A stretch of 64,000 bases of DNA from Flavobacterium rhamnosiphilum (GTDB taxonomy: Bacteria; Bacteroidota; Bacteroidia; Flavobacteriales; Flavobacteriaceae): assembly GCF_004349195.1 (NCBI RefSeq), contig NZ_SMLG01000008.1:62001-126000 (forward strand), given 5' to 3'. The stretch's first letter is position 1, and the number at the start of each line of letters is the position of its first letter. Under the pieces are notes generated by a model, which was not told the DNA's origin, did no database searches, and worked only from the letters and a program-made list of their open reading frames with translations. The position numbers and the translations under genes are program-made. Below, one piece after another: positions 55,537 through 60,656 of the stretch.

Positions 55537-56250
55537 ATGAAGGAAGAGTATTTCAAATGGCATTCACCCCACCTTAACAGGGATATTGAAATGTTAGTTT
55601 TTGGACACGCAGGATACCCTATTATTTTATTTCCTACTTCCATGGGCAGTTACCATGAAAATAAAGACATGGGATTGATTGATTCCGCAAGATGGTATAT
55701 TGAGCAGGGTTTAATCCAGATATTTTGTCCCGATAGTATTGACAAAGACAGTTTTTACAATAAAAATATTCATCCCATACATCGCATAGAAAATCACGTC
55801 AGATACGATAAAATGATTTGTCATGAAATCGTTGAAAAAGTGAAAAACAACACTTCTTCCGGAAAAGTTGTTGTGGCAGGTTGTAGTTTTGGCGGGTATC
55901 ATGCCGCTAATTTTGCCTTTCGTCATCCGGGATATGTCAGCCATATGTTCTCGATGAGCGGTGCTTTCAATATCAAAAGTTTTATGGATGGTTTTCACAA
56001 TGATGATGTGTTTTACAACAGTCCTGAAGATTATTTATACGGTCTAAATGATTATGAAATATGGAATATGGACATCGTTTTAGGAACTTCTAATTGGGAT
56101 ATTTGTTTCGATGCCAATCTAAAATTAAGCAAAGTTCTAAGCGACAGGAACATTCATCATTGGTTAGATATTCGTCAGGAACGCAAGCACGACTGGCCGG
56201 TCTGGAAAGAAATGTTTCCGCATTATTTATCAAGAATTAAATTTTTTTAA
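55537..56250 (+). CDS. Alpha/beta hydrolase (esterase D/tributyrin-esterase-like)
   Basis: The 237-residue protein has the nucleophile elbow GCSFGG (Ser117) after VVVAG, an oxyanion region LFPTSMGSYHENKDMG (31-46), and a C-terminal ERKHDWPVWKEMFPHYL where His is the probable catalytic base. The Asp is likely in the preceding strand but I cannot place it. The start at 55537 begins directly with the enzyme core. It is first of five co-directional genes with ligase-type enzymes, so it may release or trim an ester or amide product. Confidence 0.85.
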   Translation: MKEEYFKWHSPHLNRDIEMLVFGHAGYPIILFPTSMGSYHENKDMGLIDSARWYIEQGLIQIFCPDSIDKDSFYNKNIHPIHRIENHVRYDKMICHEIVEKVKNNTSSGKVVVAGCSFGGYHAANFAFRHPGYVSHMFSMSGAFNIKSFMDGFHNDDVFYNSPEDYLYGLNDYEIWNMDIVLGTSNWDICFDANLKLSKVLSDRNIHHWLDIRQERKHDWPVWKEMFPHYLSRIKFF

Positions 56251-56268
56251 AATTACAAACGTATCAAG

Positions 56269-57216
56269 ATGAAAAAAATTGGAATTTTATTTGGAATGGA
56301 AGACACCTTTCCGCAAGCATTTATTGATCGGGTTAACTCAAAAAACGAAAAGGGAATCATTGCGGAAGCGGTTGCTATTGATAAAGTAGTTCAAAATCAA
56401 GACGGAGAATATGCGGTAATTATTGACCGAATTTCCCAAGATGTCCCTTTTTACCGTGCTTATTTAAAAAATGCCGCTTTAACAGGAACCAATGTAATTA
56501 ATAATCCTTTTTGGTGGAGTGCTGATGATAAATTTTTCAATAATGCTTTGGCAGATACTCTTGGTGTTCCGCTTCCTAATACGGTAATTCTTCCTTCGGC
56601 CGAACATCCTACTGATACCACCGAAAAATCTTTCCGAAATTTAAAATATCCAATGGACTGGCAAGGAATCTTTGATTACATTGGCTTTCCGGCTTATATG
56701 AAACCGTATGCTGGTGGCGGTTGGAAAAACGTGTATCGATTAGAAAACAAAGAAGAGTTTTGGGAAAAACATCAGGAAACGGGACAATTAGTGATGATAT
56801 TACAAGAAGAAATTGTTTTTACGGAGTATTTTAGGGTCTATTGTTTGGGTTGTAAAGCAGTGCGAATTATGCAATATGAACCAAGAAATCCGCATCATTT
56901 GCGGTATGTAATTGATGGGCCTCCAGTTGATAAAAAGTTATTAGCCACAGTAAAAGACTATACTTTACGTCTTTGTGAAGGTTTAGGATATGACTTTAAT
57001 ACGGTCGAATTTGCCGTTCGGGGCGGAATTCCGTACGCAATTGATTTTGGAAATCCAGCGCCTGATGCCGAGTTGACTTCTGTGGGTGCTGAGAACTTTG
57101 AATGGGTGGTGGAAGAAGCCGCAAAAATGGCTATCGCTGCCGCAAAAAAACAAAAACCAGGGAAAATAAATTTGACTTGGGGAACTTTTATAAAAGATGC
57201 CGCCGGAGGAAAGTAA
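56269..57216 (+). CDS. ATP-grasp family ligase-like protein, first of cluster
   Basis: The 315-residue protein starts MKKIGILFGMEDTFPQAFID and has ATP-grasp features: KPYAGGGWKNVYRL (about 144-157, phosphate-binding), MILQEEIVFTEYFRVYCLG (about 174-192) and a C-terminal VEFAVRGGIPYAIDFGNPAPD (about 244-264) with Mg-binding acids. Relatives ligate a carboxylate to an amine with ATP. It is 18 bp after the esterase. Repeats separate it from the next ligase gene. Substrate unknown. Confidence 0.82.
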   Translation: MKKIGILFGMEDTFPQAFIDRVNSKNEKGIIAEAVAIDKVVQNQDGEYAVIIDRISQDVPFYRAYLKNAALTGTNVINNPFWWSADDKFFNNALADTLGVPLPNTVILPSAEHPTDTTEKSFRNLKYPMDWQGIFDYIGFPAYMKPYAGGGWKNVYRLENKEEFWEKHQETGQLVMILQEEIVFTEYFRVYCLGCKAVRIMQYEPRNPHHLRYVIDGPPVDKKLLATVKDYTLRLCEGLGYDFNTVEFAVRGGIPYAIDFGNPAPDAELTSVGAENFEWVVEEAAKMAIAAAKKQKPGKINLTWGTFIKDAAGGK

Positions 57217-57227
57217 TCAGTATTCAG

Positions 57228-57304
57228 TTTGTCATTCCGAGGAACGAGGAATCTCAACCATAAGGAACAGCAAACAGAGATTCCTCGTTCCTCGGAATGA
57301 CAAA
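57228..57304. repeat. Perfect 28-bp hairpin repeat (TTTGTCATTCCGAGGAACGA arms)
   Basis: Arms at 57228-57255 and 57277-57304 are exact inverted copies, separated by 21 bp. The arms share CGAGGAACGA with the hairpin at 18081-18177 but the flanks differ, so the two belong to one family with separate variants. It lies 12 bp after the stop codon of the ATP-grasp gene. Confidence 0.9.
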
Positions 57305-57356
57305 GGGGAAGAAAAATGTAATTTTAAATAAAAGTTTTGTTGATTACGAAATCCCC

Positions 57357-57460
57357 TAGCCCCGATTAAAGTGAAAATCCTTTTTTGTCCTGAAAAAGTT
57401 CAGGACAAAAAAGATTGCAACGGAAAGCGGGTCCCGATAGCTATCGGGATAGCTCCTAAA
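57357..57460. repeat. Interspersed repeat, copy 3 (AGCCCCGAT...AGCTCCTAAA)
   Basis: This longest copy begins AGCCCCGATTAAAGTGAAAA, has a strong inner hairpin (CTTTTTTGTCCTGAA with TTCAGGACAAAAAAG), then TTGCAACGGAAAGCGGG, an 18-bp perfect palindrome TCCCGATAGCTATCGGGA (57432-57449) and ends AGCTCCTAAAA, just before the ATG at 57472. Confidence 0.85.
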
Positions 57461-57471
57461 AAAATAAATTA

Positions 57472-58578
57472 ATGAAAAAATTACCCGTTTTTACACTTGG
57501 TGTTGAAGAAGAATATCAAATTATAGATCCTGAAACAAGAGATTTGCGGTCGCATTTGTCAAAAATTGTGGATGGTGCCAAAATAATTTTAAATGAGCAG
57601 GTTAAAGCCGAAATGCATCAATCGGTGGTGGAAGTGGGTACTAATATCTGCAGTAATGTCAATGATGCCAAAAATGAGATTCGATTTTTACGGTCTAAAA
57701 TTGTTGAATTAGCGGATAAACAAGATCTTATTGTTGGTGGAGCCGGGACGCATCCATTTTCAAAATGGCAGGATCAGCCCATAACTGACGACCCTCGATA
57801 CCACGATATTGTCAATGAATTGCAGGATGCGGCACGTTCCAATTTGATTTTTGGAATGCATTGTCATGTGGGTATTGAAAACCGTGAAATTGGCTTGCAA
57901 TTGATGAATCAAGCCACGTATTTCCTACCTCACATATTTGCACTTTCAACAAATTCTCCTTTTTGGGAAGGCAGAAAAACAGGTTATAAGTCCTTTAGAA
58001 CTAAAGTTTTTGACAAGTTTCCTAGAACGGGTTTGCCGGAATATTTTGATTCGGTAAGTTCCTATGAGAATTATTTAGATACTTTGGTAAAAACAAATTG
58101 TATTGATAATCCTAAGAAAATCTGGTGGGATCTACGCTTGCATCCGTTTTATAATACGATTGAATTCAGGATTTGTGATATGTGTTTAACGGTAGATGAA
58201 ACCATTTGTATTGTAGCAATTATTCAGGCAATTGTGGCTAAACTTTACAAGCTTAACATGAATAATACGAGTTTTAATATCTATCGATTGGCATTGGTAA
58301 AGGAAAATAAATTTCGTGCGGCTCGTTATGGAATTGATAATAATATGATTGATTTTGGATTGCAAAAAGAAGTGGAAACCAAAATGCTTATCTTGGAATT
58401 GTTAGACTTTGTCGATGATGTTGTTGATGAATTGGGAAGCCGCGAGGATATTAATTATGTTCATGAAATTTTGAAAAACGGAACCGGAGCAGACAAACAA
58501 CTAACTGTTTTTGAAGAAACAGGGGATCTTTCCAAAGTGGTAGACTTTATAACTGGCGAATTTACCAAGGGATTATAA
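57472..58578 (+). CDS. Carboxylate-amine ligase, GCS2/YbdK type
   Basis: The 368-residue protein begins FTLGVEEEYQIIDPETRDL (about 7-25), the three glutamates being the metal/substrate motif of the GCS2 glutamate-cysteine-ligase family, and has MHQSVVEVGT and GMHCHVGIE (metal/substrate residues) and LRLHPFYNTIEFRICD (near the C-terminal half). YbdK-like enzymes join an amino acid or other amine to a carboxylate with ATP. It starts 12 bp after the interspersed repeat and is 41 bp before the amidotransferase. It is likely to make the amide bond of the cluster product. Confidence 0.88.
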   Translation: MKKLPVFTLGVEEEYQIIDPETRDLRSHLSKIVDGAKIILNEQVKAEMHQSVVEVGTNICSNVNDAKNEIRFLRSKIVELADKQDLIVGGAGTHPFSKWQDQPITDDPRYHDIVNELQDAARSNLIFGMHCHVGIENREIGLQLMNQATYFLPHIFALSTNSPFWEGRKTGYKSFRTKVFDKFPRTGLPEYFDSVSSYENYLDTLVKTNCIDNPKKIWWDLRLHPFYNTIEFRICDMCLTVDETICIVAIIQAIVAKLYKLNMNNTSFNIYRLALVKENKFRAARYGIDNNMIDFGLQKEVETKMLILELLDFVDDVVDELGSREDINYVHEILKNGTGADKQLTVFEETGDLSKVVDFITGEFTKGL

Positions 58579-58619
58579 AATATAAATTAACTTTACGCAT
58601 TATCTTTTTTTAAATAATT

Positions 58620-59450
58620 ATGTCGAATAAAATTATAAAAATAGCGCTTTTAGATATGTACAAAGGGGAACCTAATCAAGGGATGCGCTGTATAATTGAT
58701 GTTGTAAACAGGTTTAGTCCAGTAGTTAGTTTTGAAATATTCGATGTTCGGGTAAAATGTGAATTGCCGGATATCAAAGAGTTTGATATTTACATTTCAA
58801 CCGGAGGTCCAGGAAATCCATTAATTGGTGATGGAAATTGGGATGTGAAATATTATGCGTTTATTGATTCATTGCATAAATGGAATACTGAAAATGCAAT
58901 TAAAAAGCATGTGTTGTTCATTTGTCATTCTTTTCAAATGGCTTGCTTGCATTTTGGGTTGGCCACGGTGACCCGAAGAAATGATACTTCTTTTGGTGTA
59001 ATGACAATTCATAAAACCAAAGAAGGGCTTACAGATCCTTTATTTGAAGGGTTAGCAGATCCTTTTTATGGGATTGATTCCAGGGATTATCAAGTGGTAC
59101 AGCCTAAGCTTAGTATTTTTTCTAAAAAAGGGGCTAAAATTATTTCGTTAGAAAAAATAAGGGATAATGTACAATACGAGCGTGCAATTATGGCGGTTCG
59201 TTTTACCGATTATTTTGTAGGGACACAATTTCACCCGGAAGCCGATCCGGTAAGCTTTATCTCGCATTTGAGAAACAAACAGGCGAAAGAAAAAATCAGG
59301 AATATGAAAGGGAAAAGAAAGTTTCGAAACATGCTGGAAGATTTATTGGATGATGATAAAATATACAGAACCAATGAAACTTTGATTCCTAATTTCCTTC
59401 GAATAGCGATTAATGACTTGATGAAAACCAAGAGAATGCTTTCTAATTAA
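58620..59450 (+). CDS. Class I glutamine amidotransferase-like protein
   Basis: The 276-residue protein has the complete GATase1 triad: Cys102 in FICHSFQMA, His205 and Glu207 in TQFHPEADP, and the oxyanion loop TGGPGNP (61-67). It would release ammonia from glutamine or cleave gamma-glutamyl bonds. A C-terminal extension of about 65 basic residues (KEKIRNMKGKRKFRNMLEDL) is not part of the core domain and may contact a partner. It lies between the GCS2-like ligase (41 bp) and the ATP-grasp-like gene (15 bp). Confidence 0.85.
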   Translation: MSNKIIKIALLDMYKGEPNQGMRCIIDVVNRFSPVVSFEIFDVRVKCELPDIKEFDIYISTGGPGNPLIGDGNWDVKYYAFIDSLHKWNTENAIKKHVLFICHSFQMACLHFGLATVTRRNDTSFGVMTIHKTKEGLTDPLFEGLADPFYGIDSRDYQVVQPKLSIFSKKGAKIISLEKIRDNVQYERAIMAVRFTDYFVGTQFHPEADPVSFISHLRNKQAKEKIRNMKGKRKFRNMLEDLLDDDKIYRTNETLIPNFLRIAINDLMKTKRMLSN

Positions 59451-59465
59451 TACATTTATTTTAAG

Positions 59466-60656
59466 ATGATTTCAAAATATCGGGAGTTATTTAATACTCA
59501 ATTTACAGAAAAAAAATATCAGGAATTTAAAGATGATATTGCTTCCGATTTTAATTACATGCCTACTTTTCGATTAGGTGAAACCCCTTTTTTTATTTCA
59601 AATGAGTTAAAAGCACAATTGATTGAAGGCTGTAATCAAGTTATAGCTTTTGTTCAAAAAGAAGACTTTAAAATACTTACAAATAAATCATTAGAATTAA
59701 ACCATAAAGTTCCAAATGAGGATGAACACACTACTTTTTTAGCAATTGATTTTGGAATTTGTGAAGAAGACGGAGCTGTTATTCCTAAACTAATTGAAGT
59801 ACAGGGATTTCCTTCTTTGTACAATTATCAGATTAATTTGTATGAGAAATTCAAGAATAACTACCCTTTTCTTAGCGAATTAACGCCGTTTATCAACAAC
59901 ATTGAACCACAAGAATATTTCGATATTTTGGAAGAAGCGATTTGCAATAAGCATCCGAAAGAAAATGTTATTTTGCTTGAAATAGAACCCGAAAAACAAA
60001 ATACCAAGATTGATTTTTATTATTGCAGAAGAGATATCGGTATACCGATAGTTTGCGTTACTGAACTCCTAAAGAAAGACAAACAACTGTTCTATTTGAA
60101 CGAAAAAGGCGATGAAATTCGGGTAAAAAGAATCTATAATCGGGTTATTTTTGATGAATTGGATTTGCGAACCGATTTAAAGTTGAATTTCCATTTTTCA
60201 GATGAACTTGATGTAGAATGGGCTGGACATCCCAATTGGTTTTTTCGAATCAGTAAATTTATTTTACCTTTTCTAAAAGGAAAGTATTTCATCGAAACTA
60301 CTTTGTTGAGTGACTTAAAAGAAATCCCTCAGGATTTAGAAAATTACGTTTTAAAACCTCTATTTTCTTTCTCAGGAACAGGCGTTATTTTTCATGTAAC
60401 AAAAGAAGATATCGAAGCTGTAGTTGATAAAGAGCTTTATATTCTTCAAAAAAAGGTAAACTACATTCCTATTGTACAATCTCCGGAGGGAAAAGTAAAA
60501 GCCGAAGTGCGTGTGCTTTGTGTTTGGAAAAAAGAGGATGCAGCTCCTACTCTACTGTGCAACTTGGTCCGATTGAGTCGTGGCGAAATGATTGGCGTTA
60601 AATTCAATAAAGATAAAGATTGGGTTGGCGGAACACTTGGATTATTTGAAAGGTAA
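59466..60656 (+). CDS. ATP-grasp-like protein, second of cluster
   Basis: The 396-residue protein has an N-terminal domain with LAIDFGICEEDGAVIPKLIEVQGFPS (compressed over 97-122; E118 and Q120 appear to be metal or substrate residues) and an ATP-grasp-like C-terminal part with LKPLFSFSGTGVIFHV (about 299-314), ILQKKVNYIP and AEVRVLCVW. It resembles circularly arranged ATP-grasp proteins related to glutathionylspermidine synthase. It is the last gene of the cluster. Substrate unknown. Confidence 0.7.
   Translation: MISKYRELFNTQFTEKKYQEFKDDIASDFNYMPTFRLGETPFFISNELKAQLIEGCNQVIAFVQKEDFKILTNKSLELNHKVPNEDEHTTFLAIDFGICEEDGAVIPKLIEVQGFPSLYNYQINLYEKFKNNYPFLSELTPFINNIEPQEYFDILEEAICNKHPKENVILLEIEPEKQNTKIDFYYCRRDIGIPIVCVTELLKKDKQLFYLNEKGDEIRVKRIYNRVIFDELDLRTDLKLNFHFSDELDVEWAGHPNWFFRISKFILPFLKGKYFIETTLLSDLKEIPQDLENYVLKPLFSFSGTGVIFHVTKEDIEAVVDKELYILQKKVNYIPIVQSPEGKVKAEVRVLCVWKKEDAAPTLLCNLVRLSRGEMIGVKFNKDKDWVGGTLGLFER

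What the first reader, a model, noticed from the sequence alone, without database searches (positions are those of the whole stretch)
55537..60656. Five-gene cluster of esterase, two ATP-grasp proteins, GCS2-type ligase and GATase: likely undescribed amide/peptide pathway
Seen: five co-directional genes with short gaps except where two repeats lie; complete GATase triad (Cys102/His205/Glu207), GCS2 motif and ATP-grasp loops. Known: each family forms or breaks amide bonds (ATP-grasp and GCS2 ligases) or handles gamma-glutamyl/ammonia transfer (GATase). Inference: together they could make a small non-ribosomal peptide or thiol-like molecule, or remodel a carboxylate; no named pathway comes to mind.
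Basis: partly seen in the sequence, partly recalled or inferred. Interest (0 to 1): 0.8.

Follow-up and report, generated by a model that had tools for sequence, protein, structure and literature searches.

The report
Conserved multi-ligase peptide-metabolite gene system
Five neighbouring genes in a Flavobacterium-type bacterium, plus three more found nearby, form a widely shared and still uncharacterised enzyme set that most likely builds and recycles a small peptide-like molecule.

Summary
In detail: the five ORFs, the GATase triad, the GCS2 domain and the repeats in the 255-bp gap are present. The cluster behaves as a functional unit. EST-AG1-GCS2-GAT-AG2 on one strand occurs in 69 of 80 AG1-selected named loci. 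In a 148-genome Bacteroidota sample the genes co-occur even where unlinked: all 58 strong-AG1 genomes have an EST match, and all have AG2 or an alternative ATP-grasp, k3. AG2 has the glutathione-synthetase/YgiC fold, AG1 the RimK/LysX fold. Identities suggest joint transfer between Flavobacterium and Cyclobacteriaceae. Best reading: a non-ribosomal pathway that assembles and turns over a small peptide or pseudopeptide; product and substrates are unknown. Replacing bacillithiol is unlikely (BshC in 147 of 148). No named pathway was found, but the key 2009 amidoligase survey could not be read.

The parts
55537..56250 (+). EST: alpha/beta-hydrolase (esterase-type), 237 aa; GxSxG nucleophile motif GCSFGG
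   Evidence: PF00561 2.5e-06, PF00756 5.8e-05; family alignment A4; an EST-profile match at E<=1e-20 in 58 of 58 strong-AG1 genomes
56269..57216 (+). AG1: RimK/LysX-type ATP-grasp ligase, 315 aa
   Evidence: TIGR00768 rimK_fam 3.1e-06, below cut-off; model pLDDT 87.9; RimK 7qys Z 21.7, rmsd 3.0, 263 aligned
57228..57304 (.). perfect 28-nt inverted repeat, member of a dispersed repeat family
57380..57413 (.). perfect 15-nt inverted repeat, scored as terminator-like only on the minus strand
57472..58578 (+). GCS2: YbdK-type carboxylate-amine ligase, 368 aa
   Evidence: PF04107 1.4e-59; NF010039 1.9e-156, over its cut-off; family profile against YbdK 1r8g 1.7e-66
58620..59450 (+). GAT: class-I glutamine-amidotransferase-like protein, 276 aa, triad C102/H205/E207
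   Evidence: PF00117 1.6e-08, 21 of 21 aligned members match PF00117; triad invariant
59466..60656 (+). AG2: circularly permuted ATP-grasp ligase of the glutathione synthetase / YgiC fold, 396 aa
   Evidence: model pLDDT 93.6; YgiC 7uk8 Z 25.6, rmsd 3.5, 341 aligned; human GSS 2hgs Z 24.6

Best explanation
The five genes are the core of a system (eight genes in this genome) of Bacteroidota that assembles a small non-ribosomal peptide or pseudopeptide by successive ATP-dependent amide ligations and also hydrolyses it, presumably in the cytosol (location not tested). Proposed division of labour (inferred): AG3 joins two amino acids as Ddl/BacD-type ligases do; AG1 extends the peptide as RimK or LysX does; GCS2 adds a gamma-linked or similar acyl-amine bond; AG2 caps the carboxyl end with an amino acid or amine, as glutathione synthetase and YgiC do. 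GAT, the M17 aminopeptidase and, in some lineages, an M29 peptidase or an amidohydrolase cleave amide bonds for trimming or turnover. The two esterases act on an acyl group or ester of the product or its precursor. Shown by computation: the unit, the folds, conserved motif residues, co-occurrence, and an identity pattern that fits joint transfer. Inferred: reaction order, substrates, a soluble product rather than a protein tag, and turnover. A compatible solute or protectant is the physiological role I would test first.
For: Order EST>AG1>GCS2>GAT>AG2 in 69 of 80 named loci by tblastn (68 of 80 by ORFs), median gaps 34/32/45/14 bp. Co-occurrence in one sample of 148 genomes: AG1 58, AG2 49, GCS2 51, GAT 40; AG1 with AG2 48, with GCS2 50, with GAT 40 of 40; Fisher P of the six pairs 1e-10 to 3e-31. 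EST in 58 of 58 AG1 genomes (P 1e-35). The 10 AG1 genomes without AG2 all carry k3, another putative ATP-grasp beside AG1, so a second ligase of that kind is found with AG1 in all 58. AG3 in 34 genomes, all with AG1 (P 4e-18). Eight genes in one direction in L058, EST2>M17>AG3>EST>AG1>GCS2>GAT>AG2. Joint transfer: EST, AG1, GCS2, GAT and AG2 are 75/85/77/63/66% identical to G076 (another family) but 38-40/65/60-61/44-48/40-42% to two same-family genomes, while the control BshC runs the other way (38% against 56%); AG3 and M17 are 69 and 51% to G076 and 52 and 44% to the same-order G012. Folds. Hydrolase associations: M29 in GAT's place in L043, L062 and L145; an Amidohydro_3-type protein directly before AG2, gaps -29 to 17 bp, in 9 loci. 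No small ORF of the gaps and flanks is conserved in the fetched loci beyond close relatives, apart from one 20-residue hit at E 0.007 in L066.
Against: No substrate, product or transcript is known. RimK-type enzymes can also modify proteins (PMC12239564, passages), so a tag on a protein is not excluded. GAT's QFHPE motif is of the ordinary glutaminase type (motif knowledge recalled), which fits an ammonia donor as well as a hydrolase. EST lacks the GxSxG motif in 4 of 98 relatives, so its catalysis may be dispensable there. The P values ignore shared ancestry. In 17 of 49 AG2 loci no other member lies in the fetched stretch (one of them cut by a contig end). AG3 is in only 34, GAT in 40 and GCS2 in 50 of the 58 AG1 genomes. 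M17 relatives are common (102 of 148) and M17's identity pattern is weak (51 against 44%), so its link rests mainly on position; EST2 was not tested for joint transfer.
Confidence: 0.6

Rival explanations
1. A protein-tagging system: AG1, AG2 and GCS2 add a short peptide or amine to a target protein, and GAT and the aminopeptidases remove it, in analogy to RimK/RimB.
For: AG1 is closest in fold to RimK (Z 21.7); 11 of 22 AG1 members (not the window protein) show weak R2K_2 hits, best E 0.0019, and R2K ligases were predicted to modify proteins (PMC4431377, abstract and passages); ligase plus hydrolase pairing is known for RimK/RimB (PMC12239564, passages).
Against: Three or four different ligases plus two esterases are more than one tag needs (inference); AG2's fold relatives YgiC, YjfC and glutathione synthetases act on small molecules; the neighbour clusters listed (the top 45) show no obvious target-protein gene shared across genera.
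Confidence: 0.18
2. GAT is a true glutaminase that feeds ammonia to one of the ligases, so that the product ends in a primary amide, as in N-acetylglutaminylglutamine amide.
For: Complete C/H/E triad, 21 of 21, PF00117 in 21 of 21, GAT only in AG1 genomes (40 of 40). The known osmolyte operon combines an amidotransferase-type enzyme, a ligase and an aminopeptidase (PMC8070244, abstract and passages).
Against: GAT has no match at E<=1e-10 in 18 of 58 AG1 genomes; an M29 peptidase occupies its place in three loci; the elbow reads I-C-H-S-F-Q rather than the usual G-x-C-x-G (usual form recalled).
Confidence: 0.3
3. A glutathione-like or polyamine-conjugate pathway: GCS2 makes a gamma-glutamyl compound and AG2 adds a third residue or a polyamine, giving a redox thiol or a peptidyl-polyamine.
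For: AG2 aligns over nearly its full length with YgiC, YjfC, Gss and eukaryotic glutathione synthetases (Z 23-26); GCS2 belongs to the glutamate-cysteine ligase family 2.
Against: Bacillithiol's bshC is in 147 of 148 genomes (144 over the cut-off) with or without the cluster, so no thiol gap has to be filled; AG2 has Q113 where YgiC has N117 in the metal motif (matched by eye); AG1, AG3 and the esterases have no place in glutathione synthesis.
Confidence: 0.2
4. Chance or mere synteny: five independent housekeeping genes that happen to lie together.
For: In 17 of 49 AG2 loci the other genes are not nearby.
Against: Co-occurrence persists without linkage; flanking genes of the window are shared mainly with Flavobacterium-labelled loci; the identity pattern fits joint transfer.
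Confidence: 0.02

Closest known systems
Glutathionylspermidine synthetase / YgiC-YjfC peptide-spermidine ligases and eukaryotic-type glutathione synthetase (fold of AG2)
   Same: Near full-length fold match, Z 23-26; two ATP-site lysines align in the profile comparison (probability 54%); D...E.x motif in the same place by eye
   Different: 11-14% identity; not over the Pfam GSP_synth cut-off (12.8 against 29.3 bits); Q instead of N in the metal motif in the 42 aligned members
RimK / LysX / ArgX ligases (fold of AG1)
   Same: Fold, Z 19-22
   Different: 13-16% identity; far below the NCBIfam cut-off (26.8 against 143.4 bits); K/R-rich tails of 40 or more residues in 24 of 123 members
YbdK carboxylate-amine ligase (GCS2)
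   Same: Clear family member
   Different: YbdK is not known to me as part of such a set (recalled)
NAGGN osmoprotectant operon (PA3459-PA3461)
   Same: Non-ribosomal ligase plus amidotransferase-type enzyme plus aminopeptidase in one operon (PMC8070244, passages)
   Different: Asparagine-synthase and GNAT components not among the hits of the five window proteins; here several ligases and two esterases
E-64 pathway ligase Cp1B
   Same: Stand-alone ATP-grasp of the homoglutathione synthetase fold making a pseudopeptide (PMC12568646, passages); Z 22.9 to AG2
   Different: Fungal secondary metabolism; partner Cp1D is an ANL-family amide bond synthetase
Amidoligase gene neighbourhoods predicted by Iyer et al. 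2009 (doi 10.1039/b917682a)
   Same: Linked ATP-grasp, GCS2-type and hydrolase genes are the theme of that survey (recalled; cited in PMC8939145)
   Different: Could not be read; whether this neighbourhood is listed there is unknown

Membership tests
YbdK/GCS2 carboxylate-amine ligase (gene 3) | Score over the curated cut-off | tested here: met
   PF04107 202.3 against 21 bits; NF010039 520.5 against 371
Class-I glutamine amidotransferase (gene 4) | PF00117 domain and Cys-His-Glu triad | tested here: met
   34.9 against 22.8 bits; C102, H205, E207 invariant in 21 of 21
Class-I glutamine amidotransferase (gene 4) | Glutamine hydrolysis and ammonia transfer | not testable with these tools
   needs enzyme assay
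GSP_synth PF03738 (gene 5) | Score over gathering cut-off | tested here: not met
   12.8 against 29.3 bits for the window protein; 12 of 42 members match at E<=0.1
Glutathione-synthetase-fold ATP-grasp (gene 5) | Full-length fold match | tested here: met
   YgiC Z 25.6 over 341 residues; 26 rows of this family down to Z 19.5, then 12.3 and below 9
RimK family (gene 2) | TIGR00768 cut-off | tested here: not met
   26.8 against 143.4 bits
RimK/LysX-type ATP-grasp fold (gene 2) | Fold match | tested here: met
   Z 21.7 to 7qys, rmsd 3.0, 263 aligned; synapsin, PPIP5K2 and Ddl at about 18-19 share the fold too
R2K clade of ATP-grasp (gene 2) | Match to R2K models | tested here: inconclusive
   R2K_2 in 11 of 22 members, best E 0.0019; none for the window protein
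NAGGN osmoprotectant system | Asparagine-synthase-type amidotransferase and GNAT-type Ngg | tested here: not met
   none among the NCBIfam hits of the five window proteins at E<=0.01; make-up of the system; the rest of the genome was not searched for it
Glutathione biosynthesis | Glu+Cys and gamma-GluCys+Gly ligation | not testable with these tools
   needs enzyme assay
Graspetide (RiPP) cluster | Conserved precursor peptide gene | tested here: inconclusive
   11 small ORFs (20 aa or more) of the upstream flank, the AG1-GCS2 gap and the downstream flank show no conservation beyond close relatives in the loci fetched, apart from one 20-residue hit at E 0.007; a precursor elsewhere was not sought
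Known anti-phage defence system | PADLOC model match | tested here: not met
   0 families at E<=0.001 for all 8 proteins

The most novel reading that the evidence does not exclude
A dedicated pathway, widespread in Bacteroidota, for a hitherto unknown non-ribosomal peptide-type metabolite (protectant, storage compound or cofactor), made by three different ATP-grasp ligases plus a GCS2 ligase and recycled by its own peptidases, and spread between bacterial orders as a set.
Probability: 0.4. Interest if true: 0.8.

Novelty: new variant of a known kind. Interest (0 to 1): 0.62.

Why it matters
In the sample 58 of 148 Bacteroidota genomes keep this set, so a large bacterial group probably contains a metabolite nobody has named. 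The analysis gives a defined gene list, including genes outside the window, natural replacements (k3 for AG2, M29 for GAT) and carrier and non-carrier species within one genus. That makes comparative metabolomics directly feasible.

Tried and rejected
Bacillithiol link: bshC is in 147 of 148 genomes (144 over the cut-off), so it does not discriminate. Polyamine link through nspC (TIGR01047): 76 of 148 match at E<=0.001 but only 5 over the cut-off, so uninformative. Plasmids: no match for AG1, GAT or AG2. Defence: no PADLOC match for 8 proteins; no PHROGs match for AG1, GAT and AG2. Ribosomal precursor peptide: none conserved near the genes. Solved relatives by sequence: none for GAT at 1e-6; weak for AG1 and AG2. 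AG2 against k3 by profile: probability 36%, E 4e-4, so common descent is suggested but not secure. Promoter scan: 31 sites against 25.9 (sd 4.6) expected, uninformative. GC profile: no sharp step at the cluster edges. Distribution outside the Bacteroidota/Chlorobiota/Ignavibacteria loci seen was not tested: the one genome scan kept the 80 closest only. Papers seen: PMC4431377 (abstract, outline, passages); PMC12568646, PMC2922099, PMC8939145, PMC8070244 and PMC12239564 (passages); all others only as search listings; Iyer 2009 recalled, not seen. The library holds open-licence papers only, so absence of a named pathway is weak evidence.

Dropped rows: of the 64 AG1 genomes at E<=1e-3 I kept 58 with E<1e-90; dropped were G007 and G087 (34-35% identity, E about 1e-52, no companions beside them) and G052, G067, G106 and G114 (E about 1e-3). 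For GCS2 I dropped G004 (31% identity) from 52. k3 also matches G137 at 36% identity, which has AG2 as well. G144 has AG2 and GCS2 but no AG1 match. Five EST genomes lack AG1 (G014, G062, G081, G108, G119).


Full report
OBSERVATION. The window belongs to a 3.78-Mb Bacteroidota genome (G000:C36:62001-126000); the closest named loci are Flavobacterium. The GATase triad is invariant in 21 of 21 aligned sequences. GCS2 is a clear YbdK-type carboxylate-amine ligase. The large gap holds two perfect inverted repeats, the first from a dispersed family; the same-genus relative L031 has only 71 bp there, so the repeats are probably a recent insertion.

THE UNIT IS REAL. In 69 of these the order EST>AG1>GCS2>GAT>AG2 is intact (68 by ORF calling). 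They include Flavobacterium, Algoriphagus, Belliella, Pedobacter, Mucilaginibacter, Dyadobacter, Winogradskyella and Polaribacter; the four loci labelled Ignavibacteria(e) or Chlorobiota show no GAT in the fetched stretch. Median gaps are 34, 32, 45 and 14 bp over 69-75 loci. These 80 were chosen for likeness to AG1. In a sample of 148 genomes drawn evenly from the phylum, 49 AG2 loci of 48 genomes other than the own were fetched: 13 have the full order, others have partial sets, 17 have AG2 alone.

CO-OCCURRENCE WITHOUT LINKAGE. In the same 148 genomes strong matches number AG1 58, GCS2 51, AG2 49 and GAT 40 (with dropped rows named under Tried and rejected). AG1 shares 50 genomes with GCS2, 48 with AG2 and all 40 with GAT (Fisher P 2e-22 to 1e-29 for these three). 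EST is in 63 genomes at E<=1e-20, including 58 of 58 with AG1. Ancestry is not corrected for, but the genes stay together in lineages where they lie far apart. Within the own genus only 2 of 7 sampled genomes carry the set.

REPLACEMENTS. Ten AG1 genomes have no AG2. All ten carry k3 beside AG1, a protein of 451-474 aa in the seven aligned, with a weak circularly-permuted-ATP-grasp signature (PF14403 6.4e-06, 25.8 against a cut-off of 32 bits). So each of the 58 AG1 genomes has a second putative ligase, AG2 or k3. In L043, L062 and L145 an M29-type peptidase (PF02073 2.4e-14 for L043) takes GAT's place, and the two sampled genomes with this M29 type lack GAT. In nine loci a protein of the Amidohydro_3 cluster (one of the nine scanned by Pfam) is directly before AG2, gap -29 to 17 bp, five of them overlapping by exactly 4 bp. 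The same family lies between GCS2 and GAT in L060 and before GAT in L173. In L049 AG2 is fused to a sodium:solute symporter (PF00474 2.4e-36). Different amide hydrolases next to the same ligases argue for turnover rather than ammonia supply; this is inference.

THE MISSING MODULE. Recurrent neighbours revealed a second module: EST2 (PF00756 esterase), an M17 leucyl aminopeptidase (PF00883 3.7e-109) and AG3, a third ATP-grasp (PF13535 8e-08). In L058 all eight genes run in one direction. In several Flavobacterium loci and in Robiginitalea and Polaribacter loci (L138, L156) the module faces AG2 from downstream. In the window's own genome it lies at C36:135490-139342, 12.8 kb beyond AG2 and outside the window, behind a run of other genes. 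AG3 is in 34 of 148 genomes, all of them AG1 genomes (P 4e-18). M17 relatives are common (102 of 148), so M17's membership rests mainly on position.

JOINT TRANSFER. Compared with G076 (family f8, same class) EST, AG1, GCS2, GAT and AG2 are 75, 85, 77, 63 and 66% identical. Compared with same-family genomes G107 and G130 they are 38-40, 65, 60-61, 44-48 and 40-42%. The control protein BshC behaves oppositely: 38% to G076, 56% to G107 and G130. Those two genomes have no AG3 match, so AG3 and M17 could only be compared with the same-order G012: 52 and 44% there against 69 and 51% to G076, where BshC gives 40 and 38%. In G076 AG3 sits about 0.9 Mb from the cluster. EST2 was not compared. Named Belliella, Algoriphagus and Aquiflexum loci show the same closeness (AG1 86-88%); Algoriphagus is Cyclobacteriaceae, Flavobacterium is Flavobacteriaceae. 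Joint horizontal transfer is the simplest reading; no trees were built.

ENZYMES. AG2's model (pLDDT 93.6) matches YgiC and YjfC (Z 25.6), soybean homoglutathione synthetase 24.7, human glutathione synthetase 24.6, E. coli Gss 24.2 and the E-64 ligase Cp1B 22.9; other members of that family follow down to 19.5, then the list falls to 12.3. Two ATP-site lysines (K264, K297) align with YgiC in a profile comparison of moderate probability (54%); by eye D95, E111 and Q113 correspond to YgiC D102, E115 and N117, so AG2 has Q for N throughout the 42 aligned members. AG1 (pLDDT 87.9) is nearest to RimK (Z 21-22) and LysX/ArgX (19-21); K145, E180, E247, D259 and N262 are invariant in 22 sequences (their catalytic role is my inference). 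EST has the GxSxG motif in 94 of 98 relatives.

MECHANISM. The best reading is stepwise synthesis of a small peptide or pseudopeptide by AG3, AG1, GCS2 and AG2, with GAT and the peptidases for trimming or turnover. No conserved precursor ORF was found near the genes. The nearest logic in the papers seen is the NAGGN osmolyte operon: ligase, amidotransferase-type enzyme and aminopeptidase (PMC8070244); its parts differ, so this is a likeness of working, not membership. A protectant role is a guess to be tested first. A protein tag, an amide product and a glutathione- or polyamine-type product remain rivals.

NOVELTY. The family libraries scanned name no pathway for the set and no paper listed by the open-licence searches pointed to it (titles and abstract starts seen, lists partly capped). 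The 2009 amidoligase survey could not be read and may list part of it. Linked amide ligases are a known kind; this eight-gene set with its natural replacements is best called a new variant.

Noticed in passing
L049:6637-9240 (+): Natural fusion of a sodium:solute symporter (PF00474) with AG2 in one 867-aa ORF; in L052 a 461-aa ORF that reads like the same symporter (not scanned) sits directly before AG2. May hint that the ligase's substrate is imported.
   Followed up: partly
L048, L053, L055 (family f14) and L158: EST relatives without the GxSxG serine motif although still in the cluster: possible pseudoenzymes.
   Followed up: partly
AG1 C-termini, e.g. L034, L035, L063: 24 of 123 AG1 proteins end in tails of 40 or more residues with at least 20% K/R, often with much Ala and Pro. 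Function unknown.
   Followed up: no
window 57217-57471: Palindromic dispersed repeat inserted in the AG1-GCS2 gap; 12 matching sites in the own genome, the two here included.
   Followed up: partly
L183:11605-13260 (-), own genome C36:133604-135259: An M1-type peptidase (PF01433 5.9e-15) next to AG3; ORFs of 551-554 aa from one cluster, not scanned, lie between AG2 and AG3 in L091, L099, L110 and L117.
   Followed up: partly
own genome C36:123180-133524: Run of genes that read like GMC-type oxidoreductase, sugar-isomerase and transporter genes (judged from sequence starts) between the five-gene cluster and the AG3 module; looks like an inserted sugar-catabolism island.
   Followed up: no
L170, L171 (G007, G087): Divergent AG1 homologues (34-35% identity) without any recognised companion gene nearby.
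   Followed up: no
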